Assembly (NCBI GenBank): GCA_028288585.1
Contig: JAQBNL010000066.1
Span: 1-38,006, forward strand
Length of the DNA: 38,006 nt
Direction: 5' to 3'
DNA from: Chitinophagaceae bacterium
Lineage (GTDB): Bacteria > Bacteroidota > Bacteroidia > Chitinophagales > Chitinophagaceae
Made by a program: the position numbers and the translations under genes
In this document: in pieces, positions 6,150-21,102 of the stretch
How positions within the stretch are numbered: the first letter of the stretch is position 1
Layout: every line of letters begins with the position of its first letter
Notes under the pieces: generated by a model
What the model was told of the DNA's origin: nothing
Seen by the model: the letters and a program-made list of their open reading frames with translations, nothing else
Databases searched by the model: none

Positions 6150-8105
6150 ATGAAAAAAGTTTCCTCTTTCCTGTTATTTCTTTTTATTTCTTTTATTTCA
6201 ATTGCTCAATCAAATTCAAAATATGATCCCCATGTTTTATTCTCCCCGCTTTTTTATTCATCTTGTGTAAATGAATACAGATCAGCAAATGGAGAACCGG
6301 GCCCAAAGTATTGGCAGAACAGGGCCAACTATCAGATAAAAGCTTTTCTGGATGATGTAAAAAATGAAATAACAGGAAGTGTTACGGTAACATATACTAA
6401 CAACAGTCCTCATGGGCTGGAATTTTTATGGCTTCAGTTAGATCAGAATTTGTATGACCTCACTTCACGCGGACATTCAAAACTTCCTGCAATTGTAATA
6501 AGCCGTTATGGAGATATAAATACAACCTTTAACGGGGGATATAAAATAAGCGCTGTAAAAATGCTTACAGGAACACAGGGAAAAATAACTGAATCGAATA
6601 TTACACCAATTATTACCGATACCAGGATGCAGCTCATATTGCCAAAGCAGGTTGCTGCAAATGGCGGGACAATAAAATTTAAAATTGAGTACTCATATTT
6701 AATTCCGGAAAAAGGTTCTGACAGAACCGGGATTTTGCCTGCAAAAAACGGAAATATTTATGCAATCGCTCAGTGGTATCCCCGCATGTGTGTTTTTGAT
6801 GATATACAGGGCTGGAATACTTTGCCATATTTAGGAGGAGGTGAGTTTTATCTTGAGTATGGAGATTTTGATTTTACAGTTAATGTTCCCGCTGATCATA
6901 TTGTAGTGGCGTCCGGCGACTTACAAAACCCTGATGAAGTTTTAACCGCTGAACAATTAAGAAGGTATAATAATGCAAAGCAAAGTGATAAAACAATTGT
7001 TATAAGAAGCGCCGAAGAAGTTACTGATTCATCATCAAGACCGCAAAAAGGAAGGTTAACATGGCATTTTAAAATCAACAATGCAAGAGATGTTGCATGG
7101 GCTTCATCAAAAGCATTTATCTGGGATGCAGCAAAGATAAATTTACCCGGTGGAAGAAAGGCGCTGGCAATGAGTGTATATCCTGTTGAATCAAATGGGG
7201 AAGATAGATGGAGCAGATCAACCGAATATACAAAGGGCTCCCTTGAAAACTATTCCAAGCGCTGGATGCCGTATCCATATAATACTGCTGTTAATGTTGC
7301 CAGCAGTATCAATGGTATGGAGTATCCCGGAATTGTTTTTTGTAACTCACGAGATAAAGGTGAGGCGCTTTTTGGTGTAACTGATCACGAATTTGGTCAT
7401 ACGTGGTTTCCTATGATTGTAGGAAGTAATGAAAGAAAATATGGCTGGATGGATGAAGGCTTCAATACGTTTATAAATTATTATTCTGCAGAAGATTTTA
7501 ATAATGGTGAGTATAGAAAAGTTGATCCTTATGATAAGGCTTATGAAAAGTTTAGTGAAGGCACAGAAGCTGTTATGATAATGCCTGATGCTTTAAAGGA
7601 AAGTAATATTGGCACTGCATTGTATTATAAGCCTGCCTATGCTTTGCAGTTATTGAGAAATGAAATTATTGGACCGCAGAGATTTGACTATGCATTTAAG
7701 ACCTATATAAAAAAATGGGCTTTTAAACACCCATCGCCTTTTGATTTTTTTAGAACAATAGAAAATGCAGCAGGGGAGGACCTTGGCTGGTTTTGGAAGG
7801 CAATGTTTTTGGAAAACTATAAATTAGATCAGCGGGTTAATGAGCCTGTATATGTTAGCAACGATCCGGCGAGAGGTGCTTTAATTGTTATAGATAATCT
7901 GCAGCAGATGGCCATGCCCATTTATCTTGCATATGAAACAGGAAGCGGTAAAAAACAAACTGTAAAAATACCGGTAGAGGTTTGGCAAAACAATACCAGT
8001 TGGGTAGTAAAATTAAATACAACTGAAAGATTAAAATCAGTTACAATAGACCCCGACAGGATTTTCCCTGATGTGAATTATGAGAATAATAAATGGAGGG
8101 AGTAG
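6150..8105 (+). CDS. Secreted M1 family zinc aminopeptidase
   Basis: A 651-residue exported metallopeptidase. Residues 1-20 ([20 protein letters not shown]) are a Sec signal peptide. An N-terminal beta-sandwich domain precedes the catalytic domain, which carries HEFGH (His413, Glu414, His417) and, 18 residues on, the third zinc ligand Glu436 in [10 protein letters not shown]; this is canonical M1 spacing. The exopeptidase GAMEN motif appears as NGMEYPG, the form usual in Bacteroidota M1 enzymes. It probably trims peptides in the periplasm or outside the cell; the exact substrate is unknown. A single-gene unit with its own promoter. Confidence 0.9.
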
Positions 8106-8121
8106 GTGCCTGATCCGGGAT

Positions 8122-8197
8122 TTATGGGATGTGTGGAATTAAGATGCGATTTTATTTATTTATCAGTTCATAAATAATTCATATTCTTATCCCATAA
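8122..8197. repeat. Long-range inverted repeat between convergent genes
   Basis: TTATGGGAT at 8122-8130 and ATCCCATAA at 8189-8197 are perfect complements, enclosing a second AT-rich hairpin (TTATTTAT / ATAAATAA). It lies between the M1 peptidase and MATE genes and could act as a weak bidirectional terminator; there is no strong T run. Confidence 0.35.
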
Positions 8198-8215
8198 CCT
8201 TTTTAATTCTAAAAA

Positions 8216-9574
8216 TCATCGTTCAGACAATTTTTGTTTCCACCTGCCGCTTTTAATATACCAAAAGGCAATAGCAAATATGGCCATCCAGTAAATAAGT
8301 TCATTTGCCCAGGCCCATTCAAGTGATAATTTAAACTTGATCATTACCAGGTAAATATAAATGAGGTAACAAATAATGGCTATCAATTCTATCAGCAAAT
8401 TCATTTTTGTTTTGCCTGTACCGGTAACAGCATTAAGCCAGATCACGGCAATGCTCATCATCAGCATACCTAAAGAAACAATTCTTATTACAGGAACTGC
8501 ATCATGAATAAATGCCGCATCCTGCCCAAACCATTTTAAAAAATGCTGCGGAAATAAATTTAAAATACCAAGCATAATAAATGCTGCGGAAATATTAAGA
8601 ACCATTATTTTTTTTATAAGCATTATCACTTTGCTTTGTAATCCCTGGCCGATAAGATTGCTTACCATTGTATTGGTAGTGCTGGCAAATGCCCACATAA
8701 AAATGCCTACAAATCCAAATACATTACGCATCGTATTGGATATTGCCTTTGCTCTTTCGCCATAGCTTTCCAATAGGATAAAAAATATCAGCCATGTAGT
8801 TAAGCTTATGGCAAATTGGCCAACCAGCGGAGCTGATATTTTTAAAATAGACTTACTGGTTGTTTTGTGATAAGAGAAATCAGAAAACAAATTAAATTTC
8901 TTTTTTAATCCCTGTTTAAAGATTACAATATATACAATTGACATTCCTGTAAACTCAGCAATCACAGAGGCAACAGCAGCGCCGTTAAAACCTAATTGGG
9001 GAAATGAAAGTGCACCATATATTAAAACATAATCAAAGAAGATATTTATTAATGCTTCGCCTATCATACCTATCATCATGTATTTGCTGTTAAGCGTAGC
9101 TATTAAAAATGAATTTCCGCATTGAAATAAATATAAGAAGGGTAGTCCCCATACCCTGATCCTTAAGAACTCCATTTCCATTTGAAAATTTTCAGCCTTT
9201 ATAAATGGCTTTAAACAAAGAGGTGCAATAAACCAGGCAAGCAGCATACCTGCCAAAGCAAACTGCAAAGCAATACGAATTCCCTGTGCAAACACTTTAC
9301 TTATAGCAACTGTATTGCCTTCGCCGCCATGACGTGATATTAAAACCTGCAAAGCATTGCTAAGGCCATTACCACTTATCATCAGTATCAAATAAAATAC
9401 ACCCACAGTGCCTGCATTACCAAGCTCTCTTTCTCCCAGTCCCCCTAAAAAAACATTATTGGTAATAAAATTTATATTGGGAATGATAAGCGCAACAGAA
9501 ATTGGCAATGCTATTTTTAATATTTGCCGGTTGGTAATCTTTACCTGTAAACTTTTATCTATAGCTATACTCAT
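8216..9574 (-). CDS. MATE family multi-antimicrobial extrusion protein
   Basis: A 452-residue polytopic inner-membrane transporter with about twelve hydrophobic segments, starting with ILKIALPISVALIIPNINFI and including FNGAAVASVIAEFTGM in the first half. This is the MATE fold, which exports drugs or metabolites using a Na+ or H+ gradient; the substrate is not predictable. I place the start at ATG 9574. A longer frame to 9655 exists, but the -7 box TATGTTTG lies at 9584-9591 and the extra 27 residues are unlike the family. It is divergent from the DUF3822 gene. Confidence 0.85.
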   Translation of the reverse strand: MSIAIDKSLQVKITNRQILKIALPISVALIIPNINFITNNVFLGGLGERELGNAGTVGVFYLILMISGNGLSNALQVLISRHGGEGNTVAISKVFAQGIRIALQFALAGMLLAWFIAPLCLKPFIKAENFQMEMEFLRIRVWGLPFLYLFQCGNSFLIATLNSKYMMIGMIGEALINIFFDYVLIYGALSFPQLGFNGAAVASVIAEFTGMSIVYIVIFKQGLKKKFNLFSDFSYHKTTSKSILKISAPLVGQFAISLTTWLIFFILLESYGERAKAISNTMRNVFGFVGIFMWAFASTTNTMVSNLIGQGLQSKVIMLIKKIMVLNISAAFIMLGILNLFPQHFLKWFGQDAAFIHDAVPVIRIVSLGMLMMSIAVIWLNAVTGTGKTKMNLLIELIAIICYLIYIYLVMIKFKLSLEWAWANELIYWMAIFAIAFWYIKSGRWKQKLSER

Positions 9575-9583
9575 AAAAGGCTG

Positions 9584-9591
9584 CAAACATA
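9584..9591 (-). promoter_or_regulatory. -7 promoter element for the MATE gene
   Basis: On the minus strand this reads TATGTTTG, an exact TAnnTTTG match ending 10 bp before the ATG at 9574. The -33 element is weak. It implies a very short leader and argues against the longer start at 9655. Confidence 0.5.
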
Positions 9592-9672
9592 AACAGATAA
9601 ACGAATTAACTGATAAACTTTTAAACAATAGATAAACGGTTGTAAATTGCCGCACATAAATTATTTTTCATT

Positions 9673-10485
9673 TTGAAGCCTGTTTTTGAAATAATACCCG
9701 AAGCAATTTTTTTTCAGCAAACAAATCTTATCTGCGAAATAAGTTTGGATGGATTTTCCTATATTTTTGAAAATGATATTGATAAAAAATTTAATGGCTT
9801 GTCAGTATTCCATTTTGATGATGTAGATATTCCCGGGCAGTTAAAAACAATTTTTAATGAACAGCCCCTGCTGCATAAAAAGTTTAAAAAAGTTTTTGTG
9901 TCGTATTCAGGTGAAGAAAGTGCTTTGCTTCCTGAAGAATTGCATCAGGCCGGTAAAAACGAGCTGGTGCTTAACACACTGTATGGAGATCTGCACAGTG
10001 GCGCAATAGCAACTGATCTTATTGCAGATAAAAAAATATACAATGTGTATAGAATGCCTGCAGCTATTCACCAGGCAATGGTTGCACAATTTCCTTTGGC
10101 GGCCTTTAGTCATCACTATTCGTTGCTGATAAAACAGCATTTTACAGCTGGCGATCTTTTTAAAGTAATTTTTTACAGCGATACATTTATTGCAGTATTG
10201 ATAAGTGCAGGCGAATTACAGCTTGTTCATACCTATCCATACAAGTCGGGTGCGGATGTTGTATATCACCTGCTGAATATTGGCCGGCAATTTAAAATCA
10301 CCCATGTGCCGTTGCGTATAGGAGGGATGGTAGAAATTGATTCTGACCTTTATAAAGAGCTTAGCCATTATTTTAAAAATATAAGTTTTGATGAGCTGCC
10401 AGCTGAATATGAATTTGCAGAGAGCCTGAAAGAATTACCACCACACTATTTTAGTCATTTGTTTTCCCTTGCATTATGCGTATAA
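9673..10485 (+). CDS. DUF3822 family protein
   Basis: A 270-residue cytoplasmic protein of the Bacteroidota-specific DUF3822 family, which resembles an actin/ASKHA-type ATPase fold without clear catalytic motifs; function unknown. I base the family call on overall pattern (SIAYNGFSYIF-like start, KKVFVSYSG, TLYGDLHSGAIATDLIADKK, a VYHLLNIGRQF helix) and on the neighbour rsmD, with which this family is usually paired. The start is TTG at 9673: the frame is open only from 9646 and has no ATG before residue 130. It overlaps rsmD by 10 bp, so the two are co-translated. Confidence 0.75.
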   Translation: MKPVFEIIPEAIFFQQTNLICEISLDGFSYIFENDIDKKFNGLSVFHFDDVDIPGQLKTIFNEQPLLHKKFKKVFVSYSGEESALLPEELHQAGKNELVLNTLYGDLHSGAIATDLIADKKIYNVYRMPAAIHQAMVAQFPLAAFSHHYSLLIKQHFTAGDLFKVIFYSDTFIAVLISAGELQLVHTYPYKSGADVVYHLLNIGRQFKITHVPLRIGGMVEIDSDLYKELSHYFKNISFDELPAEYEFAESLKELPPHYFSHLFSLALCV

Positions 10486-11015
10486 TAAGCGGCATACATG
10501 GCGGAAGAAAGATATCACCCCCGGCCAAAATGCCGCATACACGTCCTACTACTGATATAGCCAAAGAGGGCCTGTTCAATATCATTGAAAATAATCTTAC
10601 TATTTCATCACTGAAAACACTTGATATTTTCGGCGGTACAGGCAGTATCAGTTATGAGCTGGCATCAAGAGGGGCAGATGATCTTACCATTGTTGAAAAA
10701 GACCCGGTGATGTATGAATTTATAAAAAAGAATGCTGCATCATTAGGCCTTGAAAATTTTAAAGTGATTAAGATGGATGTTTTTAAATTTCTGCAGCAAT
10801 GCACAGAAACATTCGATCTTATTTTTGCAGGTCCTCCGTATGCACTCTCAACTATTGATGACCTTCCGAAAATTATTTTTGAAAGAAAACTCTTACAGCA
10901 AAATGGATGGTTTATCCTGGAGCATACACCTGCCAATAATTACAAAACCTTTCCACAGTATAAAACACAGCGAAACTATGGCACTACTGTTTTTTCTATC
11001 TTTATAAACAATTAA
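10476..11015 (+). CDS. rsmD: 16S rRNA (guanine(966)-N(2))-methyltransferase RsmD
   Basis: A 179-residue SAM-dependent methyltransferase that modifies G966 of 16S rRNA. The family start MRIISGIHGGRKI, the HTRPTTDIAKEGLFNII motif, SAM motif I (LDIFGGTGSIS, 49-59), the acidic VEKD and KMDVFKFL are in place. One oddity: catalytic motif IV, normally (D/N)PPY, reads GPPY at 119-122 because codon 119 is GGT rather than GAT. See findings. It overlaps the DUF3822 gene by 10 bp and is followed 9 bp later by the folate gene. Confidence 0.9.
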   Translation: MRIISGIHGGRKISPPAKMPHTRPTTDIAKEGLFNIIENNLTISSLKTLDIFGGTGSISYELASRGADDLTIVEKDPVMYEFIKKNAASLGLENFKVIKMDVFKFLQQCTETFDLIFAGPPYALSTIDDLPKIIFERKLLQQNGWFILEHTPANNYKTFPQYKTQRNYGTTVFSIFINN

Positions 11016-11893: not shown

Positions 11894-12951
11894 TGCTAAA
11901 GAGTTTCAGATTTGTTTTATTTCCCCTGTCAATTTTATATGGCTTTATTATCTGGGTACGGAATAAGCTGTACGATAAAAATTTTTTCAGATCTGTATCG
12001 TTTAATTTCCCCATCATTTGTGTTGGTAATCTTTCCGTAGGAGGCACGGGTAAAACGCCTATGGTTGAGTACCTGGTAAGGCTTTTAAAAGATGAATATA
12101 AAGTTGCCACCATGAGCAGGGGCTATAAGAGAAAAACGAAAGGCTTCGCTATTGCAAATGAAAATACAACGGCTTTGGATATTGGAGATGAACCCATGCA
12201 GTTCTACAAAAAATTTCCTGACATAACGGTATCCGTTGCTGAAGAAAGATTAGTGTCGATACCGCAGTTGCTGCACGACAGGCCGGATACAAGAGTGATT
12301 ATACTGGATGATGCATTCCAGCACAGGCAGGTTAAAGCAGGGCTGAATATTTTACTTACAGAATTCAGGGACCTGTTTACAAGGGATTTTATTTTACCGG
12401 CAGGTAATTTAAGGGATCTGAAAACAAGTTATAAAAGAGCGGATATAATTATTGTAACCAAATGCAAATCCCATCTTACTGAAGAGGAAAAGAATAAAAT
12501 AATTGATGAGATAAAGCCATTGGCTCATCAAAGAGTATTTTTTACAAAAATTGAATATGGAAGCCCGTATCATCTATTTAATAAGCAGGAGAAATTTTTA
12601 TCGCCTGATACCAATATCTTACTGGTATGCGGCATAGCCAATCCAAAGCCGATAAAAGAAGTTTTAAATACCTATGCAGCCACTTATGATATGATGCGTT
12701 TCAGGGACCATCATATATTTAGTATTGGTGACCTGAAAGATATTAAGGAAGAATTTGAAAAGATGGATACGGAAAATAAAATAATTCTTACCACGGAAAA
12801 AGATGGGGTTCGCCTGGCTAAATTTGAGAATGAATTAAAAGATCTGCCGGTATATGTTTTTCCTATCAGGCATAAAATATTATTTGGCGGAGAAGACCAG
12901 TTGAATACACTCGTTACTGGGTTTGTTAAGCAGTATCCATTACAAACTTAG
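11893..12951 (+). CDS. lpxK: Tetraacyldisaccharide 4'-kinase (lipid A synthesis)
   Basis: A 352-residue membrane-associated kinase that adds the 4'-phosphate to the lipid A precursor at the inner membrane. An N-terminal hydrophobic helix (FRFVLFPLSILYGFIIWV) precedes the P-loop LSVGGTGKTP (47-56). The GDEPMQF motif, the catalytic-region IILDDAFQHR and the late TTEKDGVRL are typical of LpxK. Its presence implies an outer membrane with lipid A. It is the last gene of the DUF3822-rsmD-cyclo-ligase-GNAT-lpxK run; a structured terminator-like element follows at 13051-13085. Confidence 0.95.
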   Translation: MLKSFRFVLFPLSILYGFIIWVRNKLYDKNFFRSVSFNFPIICVGNLSVGGTGKTPMVEYLVRLLKDEYKVATMSRGYKRKTKGFAIANENTTALDIGDEPMQFYKKFPDITVSVAEERLVSIPQLLHDRPDTRVIILDDAFQHRQVKAGLNILLTEFRDLFTRDFILPAGNLRDLKTSYKRADIIIVTKCKSHLTEEEKNKIIDEIKPLAHQRVFFTKIEYGSPYHLFNKQEKFLSPDTNILLVCGIANPKPIKEVLNTYAATYDMMRFRDHHIFSIGDLKDIKEEFEKMDTENKIILTTEKDGVRLAKFENELKDLPVYVFPIRHKILFGGEDQLNTLVTGFVKQYPLQT

Positions 12952-12989
12952 GCACAATAAATTTTTGAAATAATTTTCTATCTTTAATG

Positions 12990-13085
12990 TATTCATAGAC
13001 TTTAAGCTAATGAAGAAATTCATAGTGCTTAGACCTATGATGAAGAATGGAACCGTTTAGCGTGAAAACGTTGAGCGGTTTTTTT
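12990..13085 (+). ncRNA. Two-hairpin structured segment downstream of lpxK (3' UTR or small RNA)
   Basis: Hairpin 1 (13003-13031) pairs TAAGC with GCTTA and, inside an asymmetric loop, ATGAA with TTCAT around a GAAA tetraloop. Hairpin 2 (13051-13080) pairs about 13 positions, with three G-T wobbles, around a second GAAA tetraloop. It ends in a T-rich tract, so it can act as a terminator. Two GNRA-capped stems in a row suggest a retained RNA structure. No ORF fits here. The remaining gap, 13086-13165, shows nothing but a short ACTGC/GCAGT hairpin. Confidence 0.4.
13051..13085 (+). terminator. Terminator hairpin for the lpxK transcript
   Basis: Outer stem AACCG / CGGTT, inner stem closing on a GAAA loop, then seven T with more T-rich sequence. 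It is 100 bp after the lpxK stop and is the first strong terminator there. Confidence 0.7.
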
Positions 13086-13165
13086 ATTTTATAAAATTGT
13101 TTATAATGACTAACCCACTGCGATAGCAGTAATAAACAGAAAAATGAGAAAAGCCTATAATTAAT

Positions 13166-13284
13166 GTTATGTTAAGTACTGCCCACATTGCTTTCCTTCC
13201 CTTTGAGTAATACCTTTTATTTTTCTTTTCCCTTGCCACGAGCGAACGTTATTATGTAGAAGATTATGGAGTAGATTAGCGGGA
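13166..13284 (+). repeat. Fold-back repeat, partial copy 1 (right-hand part only)
   Basis: These 119 bp match 14976-15093 at roughly 85-90% by eye, starting at GTTATGTTAAGTACT and ending at AGATTAGCGGGA. It includes the right-hand 18-mer AATACCTTTTATTTTTCT (13209-13226). The left half with the big inverted repeat is absent: the sequence left of GTTATGTT is unrelated to the other copies. That makes GTTATGTT a real boundary. Confidence 0.85.
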
Positions 13285-13379
13285 AGCTTTTCTCAAAGTA
13301 TTTACTTGCTGTAATAATTGAAATCATGGTTCTTGTAATTGCAGTATTTATTATAACTAAATACCGGAAACCAAAATAG
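13284..13379 (+). pseudogene. Possible broken 31-codon membrane peptide gene following repeat copy 1
   Basis: The frame AAG CTT TTC ... TAG has no internal stop and would encode xLFSKYLLAVIIEIMVLVIA and then VFIITKYRKPK, a single hydrophobic helix with a basic end. Its first codon, AAG at 13284, lies at exactly the position where repeat copy 2 supplies the ATG of the 169-aa gene at 15093, so one base change (ATG to AAG) would have removed the start. An internal ATG at 13326 leaves only 17 residues. The evidence is position and composition alone; it may be chance. Confidence 0.3.
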
Positions 13380-13566
13380 ACTTGCAGGCATAAAATTGTA
13401 GATAAGCTTAGAAGCTAAAATAATTAGCCTAAAATATCGTAAGTTAATTAGTATGATTTAGCAATACTTAGTAAAACCCTTACAATTCATTTAAAATTAA
13501 TTGAAAAAATAATTTATCGAAATTATCCGATTTTATATAATTGTCATTTTTAACAAATTATCTTCC
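13380..13566. other. AT-rich stretch without recognisable gene
   Basis: Strongly AT-rich DNA with several short runs of TTAGTA/AATTA type. No ORF of useful length on either strand and no strong hairpin. A -7-like TATATTTG follows at 13567-13574 on the plus strand, but without a proper -33. Confidence 0.5.
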
Positions 13567-13603
13567 TATATTTGCTAACAGAAAACAGTTCTTTAAGTAT
13601 GTA

Positions 13604-13638
13604 ATTAAAAATCCCCTGAGGTGAAGACCAAAGGGGAT
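13604..13638 (-). terminator. Minus-strand intrinsic terminator
   Basis: Stem ATCCCCT (13611-13617) / AGGGGAT (13632-13638). On the minus strand the stem runs into TTTTAATT; on the plus strand it is followed by GGAAAA, so it works leftwards. A minus-strand -7 box lies 36 bp to the right (13674-13681). Confidence 0.6.
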
Positions 13639-13681
13639 GGAAAATTTATAAATTTTTTTGTTACTTGACGGTACAAAGATA
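13604..13681 (-). ncRNA. Candidate minus-strand small RNA of about 65 nt
   Basis: On the minus strand TATCTTTG (13674-13681) is an exact -7 match. Transcription from about 13667 would run through an AT-rich self-complementary stretch (AAAATTTATAAATTTT) and end at the terminator 13604-13638. No start codon with a usable frame occurs inside. A -33 TTTG is not evident, so this is a prediction from the promoter-terminator pair only. Confidence 0.3.
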
Positions 13682-13809
13682 CTACTATTTCTCGTAGTCA
13701 CGATACATTTTCCATAATTATAATGAGTTGGTTATTGCCGTTAGCGTTAGCTAAATCAAAGATTGAGTTCGATAGGCAAATTGTGTGTTCGAATCACCTT
13801 GAACTCGCT

Positions 13810-13944
13810 ATGGCAGTACCATATAAAAAACCTTGCACACGCTGTTACGATGGTGTAATCTTTACTCCTTACATTACTGTAAGAGGAAAGAGGATCAACC
13901 ACCCTACATCCGTGTTCAAGTTTCCGTGTCCGTCCTGCTCTTAA
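13810..13944 (+). CDS. Small two-CxxC (zinc-ribbon-like) protein, 44 aa
   Basis: The frame MAVPYKKPCTRCYDGVIFTP and then ITVRGKRINH...FPCPSCS has two Cys pairs, CTRC near the start and CPSC at the very end, separated by about 27 residues with alternating hydrophobic/basic positions. This is the spacing of a minimal zinc ribbon. The frame stays open to 13723, but the upstream 29 residues look unlike coding sequence, and ATG 13810 abuts the Cys domain. The stop lies inside a hairpin that is followed by TTTT. Function unknown; possibly nucleic-acid binding by fold. I do not recognise a named family. Confidence 0.5.
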   Translation: MAVPYKKPCTRCYDGVIFTPYITVRGKRINHPTSVFKFPCPSCS

Positions 13945-13959
13945 AGAGGACACGGTTTT
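13924..13959 (+). terminator. Hairpin with T run at the end of the 44-aa gene
   Basis: CCGTGTCC (13924-13931) pairs with GGACACGG (13948-13955), followed by TTTT. It overlaps the last codons and stop of the small gene. A hairpin with the same arms occurs at 35536-35573. Confidence 0.6.
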
Positions 13960-13992
13960 CCGCAATGTCTAATCTAAAATTTGGGTTAGGCT

Positions 13993-14034
13993 AAGACCAT
14001 TCTTTGAGTAGCAGCTCGGGAGTGGTCTTTTTTT
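13993..14034 (+). terminator. Second plus-strand terminator
   Basis: AAGACCATTC (13993-14002) pairs with GAGTGGTCTT (14020-14029; one T-G wobble) and is followed by TTTTTTT. It gives a second stop 60 bp after the first. Confidence 0.75.
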
Positions 14035-14058
14035 ATTTGGGATGCAAATATAAACAAT

Positions 14059-14094
14059 AATAGTAAATATTTTAGTATTTATAGAATATTTACT
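14059..14094. repeat. AT-rich inverted repeat
   Basis: TAGTAAATATT and AATATTTACTA are perfect 11-bp complements with a 13-bp loop. No T run; role unknown. Confidence 0.5.
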
Positions 14095-14123
14095 AAATAA
14101 ATTTAGCAATAATAATGCTAATT

Positions 14124-14156
14124 AAAATAAAAACCCCGGAAACGCAATTTCCAGGG
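14124..14156 (-). terminator. Minus-strand intrinsic terminator
   Basis: Arms CCCCGGAAA (14134-14142) and TTTCCAGGG (14148-14156). The mismatched pair is C-A on the plus strand but a T-G wobble on the minus strand, and only the minus strand has the T run (TTTTTATTTT). It therefore terminates leftward transcripts, such as one from the -7 box at 14388-14395. Confidence 0.65.
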
Positions 14157-14217
14157 AGTGTGAAAAGCCACACACTTTAAATGTTGGCTCATCGTAAACC
14201 TATAAAATGTTTCAACC

Positions 14218-14334
14218 ATGGGTAAAACCCGATCATTTTACAGGAGTGCAGTTACCGGACGGATAGTTAAACCATCCTACGGAAGAACCCAACCAAACAC
14301 CACAGTCCGTGAGACTGTGAAGAAAGGCAGATAA
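14218..14334 (+). CDS. Small basic protein of the RSAVTGR...TTVRET type, 38 aa
   Basis: ATG 14218 opens MGKTRSFYRSAVTGRIVKPS, continuing YGRTQPNTTVRETVKKGR before TAA at 14332-14334. The pattern Y-R-S-A-x-[ST]-G-R-[FI]-V ... [NR]P-x-TTV-x-E is a short family I recall from many bacteria, often annotated only as hypothetical or, misleadingly, as multidrug transporter. It has no membrane segment and a strongly basic composition, so RNA or DNA contact is possible but unproven. A strong terminator follows 18 bp later. The opposite strand carries its own promoter and terminator around it. Confidence 0.6.
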   Translation: MGKTRSFYRSAVTGRIVKPSYGRTQPNTTVRETVKKGR

Positions 14335-14351
14335 AAGCTGCTTTTTCAAAT

Positions 14352-14381
14352 ACCCCCGCCTTACGGCGGGGGTTCTTTTTT
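14352..14381 (+). terminator. Strong terminator after the 38-aa gene
   Basis: ACCCCCGCC / GGCGGGGGT with loop TTAC, followed by TCTTTTTT. It is the most stable short hairpin in the island. Confidence 0.9.
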
Positions 14382-14387
14382 GGACAG

Positions 14388-14418
14388 CAAAGATATATAA
14401 GAAGTTTAAGAAAACAAT
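14388..14418 (-). promoter_or_regulatory. Minus-strand promoter candidate
   Basis: On the minus strand TATCTTTG (14388-14395) is an exact -7 element, with ATTG (14415-14418) 19 bp upstream as an approximate -33. It points left across the 38-aa gene towards the minus-strand terminator at 14124-14156. Confidence 0.45.
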
Positions 14419-14424
14419 TTGCTC

Positions 14425-14655
14425 ATGCCCTACTATCGCATAACACTTCAAATAAATAGAAAGAAAAAAACTATTGGCATCCGCCAATTAAGTAATTCAG
14501 ATATTGATTACGCTTGGCGTTATTATGAAAAGAAAGCGCATGAAAAATATAGTCCTTCGGACATAATATTTTTTGAAGTAGTAATGCTTAGTAAACTAAG
14601 CCAAGATGTGAAAGGCTTTTTGACTAAAGCAAAAAGGCCTTTGATTAATGAGTAG
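14425..14655 (+). CDS. Hypothetical 76-aa protein in the repeat island
   Basis: ATG 14425 begins MPYYRITLQINRKKKTIGIR, followed by SDIDYAWRYYEKKAHEKYSP and a helical end FLTKAKRPLINE. The pattern (strand-rich start with alternating hydrophobic residues, then Asp-Ile-Asp and two helices) looks like a compact alpha/beta domain; there is no signal or membrane segment. A frame extends 2 codons to TTG 14419, but the ATG is the better start. It ends 27 bp before fold-back repeat copy 2, so gene plus repeat resemble one cassette. I do not recognise the family. Confidence 0.6.
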   Translation: MPYYRITLQINRKKKTIGIRQLSNSDIDYAWRYYEKKAHEKYSPSDIIFFEVVMLSKLSQDVKGFLTKAKRPLINE

Positions 14656-14682
14656 GTGTTGTTTTTTCAAAACAATAAAAAG

Positions 14683-15092
14683 GATGCTCCGCAGCTAAAG
14701 AAAAATAAAAGGTATTGCCCGGCTAAAACCTCTGCTACCCTTCAGCTACGGAAAATCGTAGTAAAAAAACTTACGATTTCCCTCCGGCCACAAGACCAGT
14801 TACTTAAACATAACATTGTCTTATCGTCTCCCTTATTGGCAAATTTTTCTAATCAGTTTTTTCAAAACAAGAACTATGGCTGTTATGATTTTTTTCGCTG
14901 AATACTGTTGTTAAATAACAACGAAAAAAATCATAACAGCCATAAGGCAATTTGCCATTCCTCCGATAAGAAACCGTTATGTTAAGTACTCCCACATTGC
15001 TTTCCCTCCCTCTGAGTAATACCTTTTATTTTTCTCGTCCCTTGCCACGAGCGAACGTTACCGGAGCGGAGATTATGGAGTAGATTAGCGGG
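14683..15092 (+). repeat. Fold-back repeat, copy 2 (most complete)
   Basis: About 410 bp. 14683-14995 matches copy 3 (15687-16001) and 14976-15092 matches copy 1. An 18-bp perfect inverted pair, AGAAAAATAAAAGGTATT (14699-14716) and AATACCTTTTATTTTTCT (15018-15035), brackets the unit. Inside, 14798-14990 folds on itself through nested arms: AACATAAC/GTTATGTT, CTTATCG/CGATAAG, TGGCAAATT/AATTTGCCA, a perfect 23-bp pair (14875-14897 with 14922-14944), and GTTGTT/AACAAC. A separate hairpin lies at about 14749-14782. The right end runs straight into the ATG of the gene at 15093. Confidence 0.9.
14875..14944. repeat. Perfect 23-bp inverted repeat in copy 2
   Basis: Arms 14875-14897 and 14922-14944 (starting TATGGCTGTTATGATT and ending in the complement) match without a mismatch. 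The 24-bp loop carries a further GTTGTT / AACAAC stem. Copy 3 has the identical 70-bp structure. Confidence 0.97.
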
Positions 15093-15602
15093 ATGTTTAA
15101 AAGCAAAACTGAAAGGGCTATTGAAGATTTAAAACTTCAAAGGAATAAAGCTAAAGTGGATGGCTTTGATTTTGATTCGTGGAAAATACAAACAGCCACA
15201 TACATTGGTCATTACTTAGGTAAAGATTCTGAACAATATATGTCTATAACAAAGCCATCAAGTAGAATTTATCACTTAGATAGAAAGGAGGAAGAGAAAA
15301 AATATTTCGATAGTCAAGAGGCTACGTTTATTACCAATTTAATAAACTCCAGTATTGAGGTTATTAAAGTAAAAGGTCTTTATAAGCACCCTAAAAAAAG
15401 AAGTATATCAGGAATTAGTGAAGGTTGGTTAATTTTTTGGGCTGGCATATTAATAGGTTTAATGTATGCCATATTTCAAATTGGTTATTGGTATGGAGAA
15501 CATAGCGACAGGTCATCTACTTCCACGCTTGAAACCAATAATAAAACCGAAAAAACCACATACAAAGCCGACGATAGCACACATCAAAAAAAGATGAAAT
15601 AA
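15093..15602 (+). CDS. Single-pass membrane protein of unknown function, 169 aa
   Basis: The start ATG at 15093 shares its first base with the last base of repeat copy 2. Residues 1-105 are a charged, soluble domain with a WKIQTATYIGHYLGKDSEQY stretch (30-49) and ATFITNLINSSIEVIKV; 111-133 (GWLIFWAGILIGLMYAIFQI) is one membrane helix; the tail is Thr/Lys-rich and probably disordered. The W...L-G-x-D-S-E-Q-Y pattern recalls N-terminal domains of some proteins in defence islands, but I cannot name a family. Purine-rich GGAG motifs at 15063-15066 and 15077-15080 in the repeat may help ribosome binding. No terminator before repeat copy 3. Confidence 0.7.
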   Translation: MFKSKTERAIEDLKLQRNKAKVDGFDFDSWKIQTATYIGHYLGKDSEQYMSITKPSSRIYHLDRKEEEKKYFDSQEATFITNLINSSIEVIKVKGLYKHPKKRSISGISEGWLIFWAGILIGLMYAIFQIGYWYGEHSDRSSTSTLETNNKTEKTTYKADDSTHQKKMK

Positions 15603-15686
15603 CAATTTTCATTGTAGAAGGACGTTTTTATAATAACAGCTTTGTGAATAATTCTTTGTTAGAAAAATGCTTTGCATTTTGAAAAT

Positions 15687-16001
15687 GATGCTCCGCAGCT
15701 AAAGAAAAATAAAAAGAATTGCCACCGCTAAAACCTCTGCTCCCCTTCAGCTACGGAAAATCGTAGTAAAAAAACTTACGATTTCCCTCCGGCCACAAGA
15801 CCCGTTACTTAAACATAACATTGTCTTATCGTCTCCCTTATTGGCAAATTTTATTTAGTGCTTTTTCAAAGCAAAGAACTATGGCTGTTATGATTTTTTT
15901 CGCTGAATACTGTTGTTAAATAACAACGAAAAAAATCATAACAGCCATAAGGCAATTTGCCATTCCGCCGATAAGAAATTCTTATTTTAAGTACTCCCAC
16001 A
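15687..16001 (+). repeat. Fold-back repeat, copy 3
   Basis: 315 bp matching 14683-14995 of copy 2, about 90% by eye, with the central inverted repeat fully conserved. Differences concentrate in the loops between arms (for example 15850-15870) and at the right edge: GTTATGTTAAGT of the other copies reads CTTATTTTAAGT here. The sequence beyond CCCACA differs completely from copies 1 and 2. Confidence 0.9.
15880..15949. repeat. Perfect 23-bp inverted repeat in copy 3
   Basis: Arms 15880-15902 and 15927-15949 with the same 24-bp loop as in copy 2. All 70 bases are identical to 14875-14944, although flanking loops have diverged. Confidence 0.97.
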
Positions 16002-16190
16002 GGGCATTTGAGTAGAAAATAAAAGCGAGCGCCACTTCCCTTCAGTTACTGGATATTATAGGTGCTATTTCAGTTAAAAAATATTTTTAACTCCATAGTA
16101 AAATTACTGTATTATAATAGTATATTTACGTTTTCCAATACGTTACTGCTTAAGCCTCCCCTTAGTGAATTTTTTTATAACCTAAACCTT

Positions 16191-16418
16191 ATGGGAATGC
16201 AATTGTCATTAACTGATAAAATGAAGGAGCTTTTAAAGGAATGTTACCAAAGAGAATTAGATGAAAAAGAACCTTGTAATCCTGCAACGCATGAATTTGT
16301 AAGTGAATTGCTGGTTATGGGTTTAGCTACTCTTAAACCTTACACTTATAAAAACGGCGAAAGAAAAGCTGCCTACTTTTTAACCGATAAAGGAAGAAAA
16401 GCTATTAAAGGAAAGTAG
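16191..16418 (+). CDS. Small winged-helix-like protein, 75 aa
   Basis: ATG 16191 begins MGMQLSLTDKMKELLKECYQ and ends YFLTDKGRKAIKGK. The order helix - helix (THEFVSELLVMGLATLKPY) - beta wing (KNGERKAAYFLTDKG) - Arg/Lys helix is that of a compact winged helix, as in MarR-like or phage-type regulators; the LTDKGRKAI ending is characteristic. A GTG at 16062 would extend it by 43 residues of poor coding quality; Met44 fits the domain start. It sits 190 bp after repeat copy 3. DNA binding is an inference. Confidence 0.6.
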   Translation: MGMQLSLTDKMKELLKECYQRELDEKEPCNPATHEFVSELLVMGLATLKPYTYKNGERKAAYFLTDKGRKAIKGK

Positions 16419-16475
16419 TTATATATTTTCAAAATTTCGCTGTATTCTTTGTAGCGCTGGGTTGATGTTAGCAGA

Positions 16476-16501
16476 ATAAAAAAGCCTCTTGTTAAGAGGC
16501 T
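16476..16501 (-). terminator. Minus-strand terminator
   Basis: AGCCTCTT / AAGAGGCT with loop GTT; the T run (TTTTTTATT) lies on the minus strand. It could also weakly end the plus-strand 75-aa gene, 65 bp upstream. Confidence 0.65.
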
Positions 16502-16701
16502 GTTTCATTAGGTGCTTACGGTTAGCAATTAGTTAGGGATGGGTTGTTTTCTTAGGAGGAATTTTTCCCAGGATTATTTGGATATTTTCTGAAGCAAAGA
16601 TCGTTGGATATGGTATTGTGATTTATAGAGGATAAAAGAATTATGGATAGTAATTATTCTATAGGAGAAAAGCCTTTATATTTTTTACAATCTCCCCCAT
16701 T
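16502..16701. other. Gap between two minus-strand terminators
   Basis: About 200 bp with no ORF above 30 codons that I trust on either strand. Because the terminator at 16476-16501 faces left, a short leftward transcript could come from here, but I see no promoter match or conserved frame. Confidence 0.4.
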
Positions 16702-16730
16702 AAAAAAAAGCCCCTATTGTATAGAGGCTT
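16702..16730 (-). terminator. Minus-strand terminator
   Basis: AAGCCCCTA (16708-16716) / TAGAGGCTT (16722-16730). The odd pair is C-A on plus but a T-G wobble on minus, and a run of eight T follows on the minus strand. It probably ends the transcript of the 33-aa ORF at 16930-17031. Confidence 0.7.
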
Positions 16731-16929
16731 AGAGGTAATAGATGCCTGTTCATAACGCAAGCAAATAAAAAACGTAAGTGATTAAATTTTTATTATGTGG
16801 GATGAGAAATATTTTTGAGAGGAACAGCTTTACCTGGTCATACTTTTATGAACACATGAATATTAATAGCGGGTCTCCCGCACAGGCTTATTTACAAATG
16901 TTGATTTAATACTATAAAAAACATTCCGT

Positions 16930-17031
16930 TTACCCGGCAATAAATAATCCTCCAATACATCCCACTGTTAAGATCATTACTATCCATAACATAATTGAAA
17001 GACTGTTCTCGGTAGATCTATCCTGGTACAT
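16930..17031 (-). CDS. Candidate 33-aa single-pass membrane peptide
   Basis: On the minus strand ATG 17031 opens MYQDRSTENSLSIMLWIVMI followed by LTVGCIGGLFIAG and TAA. Ten polar residues precede a 20-residue hydrophobic helix with small-residue motifs (GCIGG), the layout of small inner-membrane proteins such as respiratory-complex accessory subunits. I cannot match it to any of these. It begins 51 bp after the T run of the TPR-gene terminator and has its own terminator at 16702-16730. CATTTTTG at 17054-17061 (minus) is one base from a -7 box. Support is composition and context only. Confidence 0.4.
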   Translation of the reverse strand: MYQDRSTENSLSIMLWIVMILTVGCIGGLFIAG

Positions 17032-17082
17032 ATAGCGTTTTATAAACCTTTTACAAAAATGCTACCAATAAATTGGTATAAT

Positions 17083-17108
17083 AAAAAACCCGGGATATTA
17101 TCCCGGGT
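17083..17108 (-). terminator. Terminator of the gyrA-TPR transcript
   Basis: ACCCGGGAT / ATCCCGGGT with a 3-base loop; on the minus strand it runs into TTTTTTATTAT, 22 bp after the TPR stop codon. Confidence 0.9.
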
Positions 17109-18465: not shown

Positions 18466-21102
18466 TTATTTCTCTTTTGATGTATCATCGGTTAAATCTT
18501 CATCCAGACTATCGGACTTATCTATAGATGTATCTTCAGCAATATTAGTTGTATCTGTTCCTTCTGAAATAGCCTCGATTGCATCACCTGTAATAGCATT
18601 TGTTAATTCCTCATCAGCTTCGTGTTCGTTAAGCTTTGTAATAGCTGCTATTTCATCCCCATCATCCAGCTTTATTAATTTAACTCCCTGTGTTGCCCTG
18701 CCCGCCTCTCTTATATCTGCTATAGATGTTCTTATAGTTACGCCTGATTTGCATGTTATCATCAGGTCTTCCTTTTCAGTAACATCTAAAATTCCAATAA
18801 GCGGACCTGTTTTATCAGTAACATTTATTGTTTTAACACCTTTGCCTCCACGGTTTGTAACACGGTATTCATCAACTGCTGTTCTTTTGCCAAAACCTTT
18901 TCCGCTAACAACCAGTACAGATGTTGAAGGGTCATTTTTATCAACACATATCATTCCCACCACTTCATCATTTTTTTCATCTACCTCAATTCCGCCAACT
19001 CCAATTGCACCACGCCCGGTTGGCCTTACTTTAGATTCAGGAAAGTGAATAGCACGGCCGCTTTTAACTGCCATCATAATTTCCTTATTGCCATCCGTTA
19101 AGCAGGCATGTATCAGTTGATCGCCTTCATTAATTGTGATAGCATTTATTCCTGTTTGCCTTGGTCTTGAAAAATCTGCCACCTTGGTTTTTTTGATGAT
19201 ACCATTTTTGGTACACAAAATAATAAAATGATTGTTTATGTATTCTTCGTCCTGCAGATTTTTTATATCTATAATAGCCCTCACTTTATCGTCAGGCGGT
19301 ATCTGCATCAGGTTTTGTATAGCCCTTCCTTTGCTTTGCTTATCCCCTTCTGTAATTTCGTAAACCTTAAGCCAGAAACACCTTCCCTTCTCTGTAAAAA
19401 ATAATAAGGTATGATGTGTAGAGGCTACAAAAAGATGCTCTATAAAATCCTCGTTCCTTGTGCTGCTGCCTCTTGCTCCTCTTCCACCCCTGCGCTGTTT
19501 GCGATACTCTGTAGCTGAAGTACGTTTTATATAACCAAGGTGAGAAATAGTTACAACCACATCTTCTTCCTCTATAAGATCTTCCATTCTTATTTCATCA
19601 TCTAAATAAACAATCTCTGTTTTTCTTGCATCGCCAAATTTTTGTTTTACTTCCGCCAGCTCATCTTTAATTATCTGGTAGCGTAAACTTTCAGTTGCTA
19701 AAATTTCTTCCAGGCGTGCTATCAGGGCCATAACTTCTGCATGCTCTTCTCTTATCTTATCAATCTCCATTCCTGTTAACCTTTGCAAACGAAGCTCCAG
19801 CACAGCTTTTGCCTGTATATCACTCATGGCAAAATTTGTCATCAATCCTTCTTTTGCAATATCCGGGGTAGATGAATTTCTTATTAAGGCGATAACCGCA
19901 TCAAGATTGTCAAGCGCAATAATATAACCTTCTAATATGTGCGCTCTTTCTTTTGCTTTTCTTAATTCAAATTCTGTTCTTCTTCTTACTACTTCGTGGC
20001 GGAACTCAATAAATTCTTTTATAAGATCTTTTACATTCAGCACTTTTGGCCTGCCATTAATCAGCGCAACATTATTGGTTCCAAAAGAAGTTTGCAGATC
20101 AGTATGCTTGTACAGGTGATTTATTACAACCTGCGCAACTACATCTTTTTTAAGATCAACAACTATCCTTGTTCCTTCTTTATTATTACTTTCATTATTT
20201 ACATCGGATACACCTTCAATAATTTTATCACCAACCAAATGCCCTATCTTTTCGGTAAGCATATCCCGGTTAACCTGGTAAGGCACTTCTGTAATAACAA
20301 TCTTTTCCCGGCCTGTTTTTGTGGTTTCAATATTCACCCTTCCGCGAAGCACTACCCTTCCCCTTCCAAAATGCAAACCTGCTCTTACGCCTTCATAACC
20401 AAAAATAATTCCGCCTGTAGGGAAATCAGGCGCCTTAACTATTTTTATTAACTCTTCTATTGTAATTTCCTTATTATCAATGTATGCAAAACATGCATCA
20501 ATTACTTCACTTAGGTTATGTGGAAGCATATTGGTAGCCATACCAACGGCAATTCCGCTGGAGCCGTTTACCAATAATTGAGGGATACGTGTTGGTAATA
20601 CCGTCGGTTCTTTAGTGGTATCATCATAATTAAATTGAAAGTCTATCGTGTCTTTTTCAATATCTTCCAGCATGCTTTCAGCAAAACGCTGTAAACGAAC
20701 TTCGGTATAACGCATAGCTGCCGGGCTGTCACCATCCTGGCTTCCGAAGTTACCCTGCCCATCAATCAGCATATACCGCATACTCCAGTCCTGCGCCATC
20801 CTTACCATGGTATCATAAATAGCAGTATCACCATGCGGATGGTATTTACCCATCACATCACCCACAATACGGGCAGACTTTTTATAAGGCTTGCCGAAGG
20901 TATTGCCCATTTCATGCATGCCAAATAAAATGCGGCGATGCACCGGTTTTAATCCGTCTCTTACATCGGGCAAAGCCCTGCCCACAATCACGCTCATTGA
21001 ATAATCAATGTAGGATGATTTCATCTGCTCTTCAATATTTACAGGGATAATTCTGCCTCTTGGAATGCCGTCGGTTGGTAATTGATTGTCTGTTGTTTCC
21101 AT
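18466..21102 (-). CDS. gyrA: DNA gyrase subunit A
   Basis: An 878-residue type IIA topoisomerase subunit that cuts and rejoins DNA during negative supercoiling. The catalytic Tyr132 lies in [10 protein letters not shown]; the quinolone-determining region reads [10 protein letters not shown], with Thr93 and Asp97 at the positions of E. coli Ser83 and Asp87. The GyrA box QRRGGRG (536-542) in the C-terminal beta-pinwheel marks it as gyrase rather than topoisomerase IV. The last 55 residues are acidic (Asp/Glu/Thr-rich), a tail known to tune gyrase activity. A TATATTTG -7 box sits at 21119-21126 (minus). Confidence 0.98.

What the first reader, a model, noticed from the sequence alone, without database searches (positions are those of the whole stretch)
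13166..16001. Family of large fold-back repeats around small genes
Three copies in 2.8 kb: a right-hand part only (13166-13284), a full copy (14683-15092) and a third (15687-16001). The full copy is bracketed by a perfect 18-bp inverted pair and its interior folds through five nested arm pairs, one of 23 bp without mismatch. The central 70 bp are identical between copies 2 and 3 while the loops between arms differ. That is the pattern expected if the folded structure, as DNA or RNA, is under selection or was copied recently. No transposase, integrase or reverse transcriptase is in view, so the element would be non-autonomous or a structured RNA.
Basis: seen in the sequence. Interest (0 to 1): 0.75.

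Follow-up and report, generated by a model that had tools for sequence, protein, structure and literature searches.

The report
Gene cassettes stacked at chromosome's dif
The fold-back repeats are recombination sites of tiny one- or two-gene mobile elements that pile up at the dif site where a bacterium separates its duplicated chromosomes; they seem to carry no enzyme of their own and appear to enter as folded single-stranded DNA through the host's XerC/XerD recombinases, somewhat as gene cassettes do in an integron.

Summary
The repeats are real but do not look like a structured RNA. Window 13150-13177 is the host dif site (pattern in 287 of 394 family genomes). The "copies" are ends of mobile elements stacked behind it: A 13167-14976, B 14977-15981, decayed C 15982-~16604. 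Each intact one ends in two inverted half-dif sequences that can fold one strand into a dif mimic with an unpaired centre. A two-part pattern for this fold finds 25 stretches in a collection of 84,980 species genomes, all titled Bacteroidota or its subgroups. In 23 site clusters the arms covary (137 of 207 pairs; shuffles mean 68, maximum 96); the left centre matches the host dif centre in its four bases next to the XerD arm in 11 of 16 (shuffled 4.1, P 5e-5). Eight element pairs with similar sites have unrelated cargo. A sister genome shows the empty site. No integron integrase over cut-off in 98 genomes. Best reading: non-autonomous cassettes that integrate as folded ssDNA through host XerCD, like CTXphi but with homology on the XerD side. 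Strand, catalysis, ssDNA source and mobility are inferred, untested.

The parts
13150..13177 (+). Host dif site, also attL of the array: XerC arm AAAGCCTATAA, centre TTAATG, XerD arm TTATGTTAAGT
   Evidence: Pattern match 13154-13177; same motif in 287 of 394 family genomes
13167..14976 (+). Element A (1810 bp), nearest to dif
   Evidence: Bounded by the XerD arms at 13167 and 14977
14977..15981 (+). Element B (1005 bp)
   Evidence: Bounded by the XerD arms at 14977 and 15982
15982..16604 (+). Element C, decayed; right limit estimated
   Evidence: Starts with an XerD arm and R-like sequence; homology to the empty dif locus of G003 resumes at 16704 = dif+100; no right site recognised in 16001-17100
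14802..14987 (+). Folded recombination site of A: left half ACTTAAACATAA / CATTGT / CTTATCG (14802-14826), right half CGATAAG / AAACCG / TTATGTTAAGT (14964-14987)
   Evidence: covariation
15807..15992 (+). Folded recombination site of B; XerD arm has one mismatch (TTATTTTAAGT)
14875..14944 (.). Terminal hairpin of A's site (23-bp perfect run)
15880..15949 (.). Terminal hairpin of B's site
14750..14781 (.). Second hairpin of A, loop ...AAACTTAC; function not shown
15755..15786 (.). Second hairpin of B
13209..13228 (+). R arm of A's outer stem; pairs perfectly with 14697-14716
   Evidence: I5; cognate pairing test
14697..14716 (+). L arm of A's outer stem (also pairs with B's R arm 15018-15035)
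   Evidence: I5, I7
15018..15035 (+). R arm of B's outer stem; pairs 89% with 15703-15720
   Evidence: I9
13178..13284 (+). R module of A (left end after the XerD arm)
14988..15092 (+). R module of B
13723..13944 (+). ORF of A, 73 aa, no Pfam family
14419..14655 (+). ORF of A, 78 aa, no family found
15093..15602 (+). ORF of B, 169 aa, hydrophobic segment about residues 111-134 (by eye); homologue inside the dif element of G279
16191..16418 (+). ORF of C, 75 aa (start codon chosen by eye), no family found

Best explanation
The window holds a small array of three (A, B, decayed C) non-autonomous cassettes in the host dif site. Each intact one is: R end - one or two small genes - L end - folded attachment site. 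Shown by sequence: location at dif, tandem structure, an exact empty site for one relative, and selection on the fold (arms, outer stem, terminal hairpin). Inferred: one strand of a circular element folds so that two inverted half-dif sequences make a dif mimic with an unpaired centre. Host XerC/XerD pair it with dif. A single strand exchange beside the XerD arm, helped by up to four complementary centre bases on that side, joins element and dif, and replication fixes it. The junctions (attL with the canonical centre, attR with the element's centre) fit an XerD-side exchange with the strand complementary to the + strand shown. The left junction stays a canonical dif, so later elements can insert there while older ones are pushed away and decay.
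For: dif: 287 of 394 family genomes, 21 of 59 in a first sample. These were found without using dif, yet dif lies upstream in 19 of the 25. Empty site: G101 has a 935-bp insert directly behind dif; in sister G352 the same flank follows dif at offset 0, 80.6% over 253 bp. Arms: 137 of 207 pairs, shuffle mean 68, max 96; perfect terminal stems of 15-33 bp in 22 of 23 clusters, mononucleotide shuffles at most 9. Left centre equals host dif centre in four bases next to the XerD arm in 16 of 22 (shuffled 6.55, 0 of 20,000), thinned 11 of 16 (P 5e-5). Own R and L pair better than swapped ones: -21.8 versus -14.3 kcal/mol, 22 elements, 0 of 20,000 permutations. No shared cargo beyond 17-21 bp in 8 of 8 pairs of elements with site identity of 75% or more (DNA comparison only). 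XerD over its cut-off in the host.
Against: No free or single-stranded form was seen, and no helper. 6 of the 25 collection loci and the viral contig show no dif in view; most are near contig ends, but L179, L196 and G219 have 1.5 kb or more upstream without it. Centre match fails in 6 of 22: G263, G336, G404, L190 (S. salmoneum), L195, L201. The signal comes from positions 2 and 4; position 3 is invariant, 1 nearly so, 5 matches in 0 of 22, 6 is as shuffled. The G in the window's dif centre may come from the element (without the window 15 of 21). attL loci were recognised by a dif consensus that includes the centre, so altered ones could be missed. XerC candidate is under its cut-off (303.1 versus 335.15 bits). 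No clear left partner at the right sites of G218 (+630) and G032. L179's terminal stem is 7 bp. R and L: in 4 of 22 the neighbouring chromosomal sequence pairs with L better than the element's own R. Not all on one side: with the strict pattern 20 sites lie on the XerD side of dif and 0 on the XerC side, but a relaxed search finds an inverted half-site 141-170 bp on the XerC side that pairs with dif itself in 5 genomes (G043, G218, G293, G306, weakly G055), and one weak same-strand hit there in L178. G043 also has the L motif about 1.4 kb out on that side.
Confidence: 0.8

Rival explanations
1. Satellites of a single-stranded DNA phage or plasmid: the elements replicate by rolling circle with a helper's initiator (second hairpin as nick site), move as ssDNA, and integrate at dif as CTXphi does; the array is a residue of integrations, not a cassette platform. 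This shares the integration step with the best explanation.
For: Small size (630-1810 bp), a second hairpin seen by eye in about 19 of 22 elements, not tested against shuffles, own R-L pairing that implies selection on the element as a unit, one cargo in a phage membrane 'moron' family, phrog_3996, E 2.9e-27, one site on a viral-collection contig.
Against: No initiator or capsid gene recognised; the longest ORF among the three longest printed per bounded element is 257 aa, though a small initiator is not excluded since only 10 proteins were scanned per library. Microvirus capsid PF02305: 0 of 234 genomes over cut-off, 1 weak match at 18.8 bits. Only 1 viral contig has the site. Filamentous-phage genes were not searched for.
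Confidence: 0.4
2. Ordinary double-strand Xer recombination between dif and the dif-like right site; the inverted partner and hairpins serve something else.
For: The right site alone resembles dif; dsDNA IMEX of this kind are known (VGJphi; PMC4246890 passages).
Against: The left centre, which a dsDNA reaction would not use, fits the host centre (16 of 22), while the right centre equals it at 13, 6, 14, 4, 19 and 3 of 22 over its six positions (no shuffle run for the right); arms covary.
Confidence: 0.1
3. A large structured RNA that was duplicated.
For: Strong predicted folds on both strands.
Against: No Rfam family at gathering score; the fold contains XerC/XerD half-sites with centres fitted to the host dif; insertion at dif with an empty site in a sister genome.
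Confidence: 0.03
4. Dead remnants of a formerly mobile family with no current activity.
For: C is decayed; 13 of 22 elements are followed by another R-like start, but a second site was recognised after the first in two loci by the relaxed test (W, L199) and in L179 by the strict pattern.
Against: Sites next to dif are intact and often fitted to the present host centre; cargo differs between similar sites.
Confidence: 0.12

Closest known systems
CTXphi attP(+) and CTXphi-type IMEX
   Same: Host XerCD, target dif, two inverted dif-like halves that can fold on one strand with an unpaired centre, canonical dif kept so that elements stack
   Different: In CTXphi the deciding centre homology is next to the XerC arm and XerC does the exchange (PMC4246890 passages); here the matching bases lie next to the XerD arm. 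Elements are 0.6-1.8 kb with no recognised phage replication or structural gene, and the arms enclose a 15-33 bp perfect hairpin in 22 of 23 clusters
Integron gene cassettes (attC / attI)
   Same: Small gene units in a row, a folded single-strand site at one end of each, similar sites with unrelated cargo (integron features recalled)
   Different: 0 of 98 genomes have an integron integrase over cut-off, although 96 have weaker tyrosine-recombinase matches, as do all 14 control genomes; dif takes the place of attI; excision not shown; growth at one end only is not strict
dif / pdif modules of Acinetobacter
   Same: Gene modules bounded by Xer sites, sometimes in rows
   Different: Described as flanked by alternating C/D and D/C sites and as not using the main dif (PMC12907356 passages); here bounded units have direct XerD arms at the main dif and a folded site
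Temperate microviruses of Bacteroidetes (BMV)
   Same: Bacteroidota, no integrase, dif-like sites, an extra inverted dif-like copy near an end in BMV4-6 (PMC3091885 passages)
   Different: BMV1 is 6.3 kb; they carry capsid and Rep genes. No PF02305 over cut-off in 234 family genomes

Membership tests
CTXphi-type IMEX | Integrated at the host dif | tested here: met
   dif upstream in 19 of 25 collection loci; empty site
CTXphi-type IMEX | Two inverted dif-like halves folding on one strand, unpaired centre | tested here: met
   XerD-arm pairing in the predicted fold of 5 of 8 sites; covariation
CTXphi-type IMEX | Homology to the dif centre on the XerC side | tested here: not met
   Matches lie next to the XerD arm; position 5 matches in 0 of 22, position 6 as shuffled
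CTXphi-type IMEX | Single strand exchange by XerC on ssDNA | not testable with these tools
   Junction centres suggest the XerD side (inference)
CTXphi-type IMEX | Filamentous phage or satellite genes | tested here: inconclusive
   None recognised among ORFs printed or the 10 proteins scanned; no genome search for filamentous-phage genes
Integron cassette | Integron integrase in the host | tested here: not met
   TIGR02249 over cut-off in 0 of 98 genomes including the host
Integron cassette | Folded site at one end of a small gene unit, in tandem | tested here: met
Integron cassette | Excision and reinsertion of cassettes | not testable with these tools
   No reads or experiment
dif/pdif module | Bounded by two inverted Xer sites (C/D and D/C) | tested here: not met
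   Bounded units read have direct XerD arms
Temperate microvirus (BMV) | Major capsid protein gene | tested here: not met
   No PF02305 over cut-off in 234 genomes, the host included
Rfam structured RNA | Match to a covariance model at gathering score | tested here: not met
   26 matches up to E 1 in 12900-16700, all below gathering

The most novel reading that the evidence does not exclude
An integron without an integrase: a gene-cassette platform of Chitinophagales in which dif serves as attI, the housekeeping XerC/XerD pair serves as the integrase, and a folded single-strand site with XerD-side homology serves as attC, collecting and exchanging small genes (many with a hydrophobic segment) at the terminus. 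It could be a living counterpart of the step by which integrons arose from Xer recombination. (Lowered from 0.35 to 0.30 after one search showed fold-backs on the other side of dif in five genomes.)
Probability: 0.3. Interest if true: 0.93.

Novelty: new variant of a known kind. Interest (0 to 1): 0.82.

Why it matters
It points to a second use of folded single-stranded DNA by the dimer-resolution machinery, outside Vibrio phages, with reversed centre polarity and very small units. Two questions become testable: whether XerD can start single-strand integration, and whether a cassette-like system can run on housekeeping recombinases alone. It also marks dif as a place of gene acquisition in Chitinophagaceae.

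Tried and rejected
DNA similarity search with the full copy in 196 genomes gave no real homologue. Rfam gave only sub-threshold hits. A narrow inverted-arm pattern over genome contigs and a dif-like pattern over viral contigs found nothing. The L motif ATGCTCCGCAGCTAA was found in 5 of 394 genomes. tblastn of the 169-aa cargo against phage records: no match. PADLOC matches to cargo are weak (L194's protein E 0.00023, L190's 0.00082, B's protein 0.0022), so no defence function is claimed. Microvirus helper not found; filamentous-phage genes were not searched. Structure prediction was not run. An XerC-type exchange of the + strand was set aside because it would leave the element's centre in attL. 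No covariance model was built; pairing was counted by script. One relaxed hit on the XerC side in L073 (-614) did not recur under the different cut-offs (where that locus's dif, at 2 mismatches, was outside the set) and was not followed. Only 10 proteins were scanned in each.
Full report
What was checked. The repeats exist at the stated places and the fold is well beyond shuffled sequence on both strands. No other copy is found in the host genome; of 196 genomes, the host included, only two others matched, over 27-30 bp.

The dif site. Position 13150-13177 reads as XerC arm (11) - centre (6) - XerD arm (11); this naming follows the recalled E. coli order. The core pattern matches one place in each of 21 of 59 sampled genomes and occurs in 287 of 394 family genomes, 256 of 331 good-quality ones, at one place in all but three of those (G268, G322, G337, as I read the table). 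Supporting but weaker: genes are mostly + from 3.8 to 13 kb and mostly - from 17 kb on, and GC skew is mostly positive before and mostly negative after, with exceptions on both sides. An ORF that I recognise by eye as gyrA (18466-21102) aligns downstream of dif in many of the family loci compared (that output was cut).

Array anatomy. XerD arms recur in direct orientation at 13167, 14977 and, with one mismatch, 15982. Homology with the empty dif locus of G003 resumes at window 16704 = dif+100, so C ends near 16604. Other bounded units: G043 1308 bp, G218 630, G336 1346, G404 981, G279 1027, G032 674, and 676-1432 bp in the other loci (22 bounded elements with the window's two).

The folded site. 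About 155-180 bp before the right XerD arm lies an inverted partner, consensus TAACATAA-TATWGA-GTTATA, so that one strand can fold into XerD arm, unpaired 6-nt centre, XerC arm and long terminal hairpin. In 8 right sites folded alone, 5 show the XerD-arm pairing; in G043 it is visible by eye; in G218 (+630) and G032 it is not clear. The two-part pattern occurs in 14 of 394 family genomes (14 sites; four also read on the other strand; reversed control 1 hit), in 25 stretches of the 84,980-species collection, all titled Bacteroidota or subgroups, and on one viral-collection contig. The search did not use dif, yet dif lies upstream in 19 of 25.

Selection on the fold. I kept 30 distinct sites; matches whose left centre did not begin with T or C, or began with AA, were dropped as opposite-strand readings. 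Beyond the positions fixed by the pattern the XerC-side arms pair at 28 and 29 of 30 at the next two positions (shuffled about 13), then a conserved mismatch follows (3 of 30), then 22, 15, 26, 22, 19 and 22 of 30. Thinned to 23 clusters, 137 of 207 pairs hold, mean 68 and maximum 96 in 2000 shuffles, with several base-pair types at one position. Outside the XerD arm there is no excess pairing worth noting. The terminal hairpin has a perfect stem of 15-33 bp in 22 of 23 clusters (7 in L179; shuffles at most 9). An element's own R and L pair at -21.8 kcal/mol on average against -14.3 for swapped ends, 22 elements, 0 of 20,000 permutations; the own R ranks best for 11 of 22 and tenth or worse for 4; it beats the sequence that actually follows in the chromosome in 18 of 22.

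Match to the host. dif (at most 1 mismatch, within 2.6 kb) was in view for 22 of the 30. The four left-centre bases next to the XerD arm equal the host's dif centre (bottom strand) in 16 of 22, shuffled mean 6.55, 0 of 20,000; by position 21, 21, 22, 17, 0, 15 against 19.2, 14.8, 22.0, 10.3, 0.0, 15.0 expected. Thinned: 11 of 16, mean 4.11, P 5e-5. The six failures are G263, G336, G404, L190, L195 and L201. The window's match includes a G that may come from the element; without it 15 of 21. In CTXphi the deciding homology lies next to the XerC arm and XerC does the exchange (PMC4246890, passages).

Empty site and sides. G101 has a 935-bp insert directly behind dif; in G352 of the same genus the right flank follows dif at once (80.6% over 253 bp from offset 0). 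With the strict pattern, in the window and loci L177-L202, 20 sites lie on the XerD side in the same orientation as dif and none elsewhere; 7 of those 27 sources had no dif in view. A relaxed search of the dif loci at hand gave 27 same-orientation hits on the XerD side (26 hits in the opposite reading there, mostly the same sites), 1 weak same-orientation hit on the XerC side (L178), and 6 opposite-orientation hits on the XerC side from 5 genomes (G043 twice, G218, G293, G306, weak G055), 141-170 bp from dif, each using dif itself as the left half; less sequence was scanned there (173 versus 481 kb). G043 has a further L motif and left-half-like sequence about 1.4-1.5 kb out on that side. So elements may also enter in the other orientation, with dif becoming part of their site; I have not resolved this. 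After the first site 13 of 22 show another R-like start (the test's wording misses the window's own R), with a second site recognised in W and L199 and two strict sites in L179, which fits decay with distance from dif. In 72 dif loci with at least 1.5 kb downstream, partly chosen by hand, 5 had a folded site and 10 an R-like start.

Cargo. In 8 of 8 element pairs with site identity of 75% or more no cargo similarity beyond 17-21 bp was found (DNA only; the pairs come from 8 elements). Genes lie on either strand; many proteins have one or two hydrophobic segments, judged by eye. B's protein has homologues in 3 other genomes of 195: inside the dif element of G279, about 200 bp from dif on the XerC side in G087, and about 216 kb from dif in G288. 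L191's cargo is in phrog_3996, a phage membrane 'moron' family, E 2.9e-27; L194's has a MarR-type winged helix, E 8.2e-8. Defence models match only weakly. What the cargo does is unknown; a membrane-associated accessory role such as exclusion of phages is my guess, at low confidence.

Mechanism. The bounded loci read keep a canonical centre at the left junction and an element centre (AAACTT, TAACTT, TAATCT and similar) at the right; left junctions were recognised by a consensus that includes the centre. With the order XerC arm - centre - XerD arm this fits one exchange next to the XerD arm using the strand complementary to the + strand shown. It is inference from end products. The host has an XerD over its cut-off and an XerC candidate under it (303.1 versus 335.15 bits). 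How the strand becomes single and how elements leave is not shown. The second hairpin, seen by eye in about 19 of 22 elements, could be a replication signal; untested.

Known relatives. CTXphi-type IMEX share fold and target but not the centre polarity. Integron cassettes share the anatomy, but no integron integrase passes its cut-off in 98 genomes. Acinetobacter dif modules have alternating inverted flanks (PMC12907356, passages). Bacteroidetes microviruses use dif-like sites (PMC3091885, passages); no capsid over cut-off in 234 family genomes. PMC5357621 and PMC3025954 were seen as passages only. Paper searches, seen as capped listings with abstract starts, showed no description of such elements; that library holds open-licence papers only.

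Noticed in passing
L099 (G043:C122) 7506-9050; L100, L142, L145: On the XerC side of dif an inverted half-site 141-155 bp away can pair with dif itself; G043 has a further L motif about 1.4 kb out. Possibly elements inserted in the other orientation.
   Followed up: partly
L206 (G087:C20:54041-54418): A homologue of B's cargo protein lies about 200 bp from dif on its XerC side.
   Followed up: partly
L202, IMGVR_UViG_3300015171_000006, 7650-10577: A viral-collection contig carries a folded site and, about 2.8 kb further, a second copy of its L end; upstream genes not analysed.
   Followed up: no
G015:C117, G118:C11, G221:C291, G440:C98: Several draft contigs end within about 200 bp of dif, as if repeats at dif break assemblies.
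   Followed up: no
window 14311-14395: Hairpin followed by T run and a sub-threshold Rfam match (BSnc120, 29.5 bits against 114) inside element A; probably a terminator.
   Followed up: no
window 13285-14400: Element A has a long stretch with few ORFs of 70 aa or more and several small hairpins.
   Followed up: no
sites of 17 of 23 clusters: GATTTTT or its complement AAAAATC occurs in the site, usually in the terminal hairpin; it might bind a host protein.
   Followed up: partly
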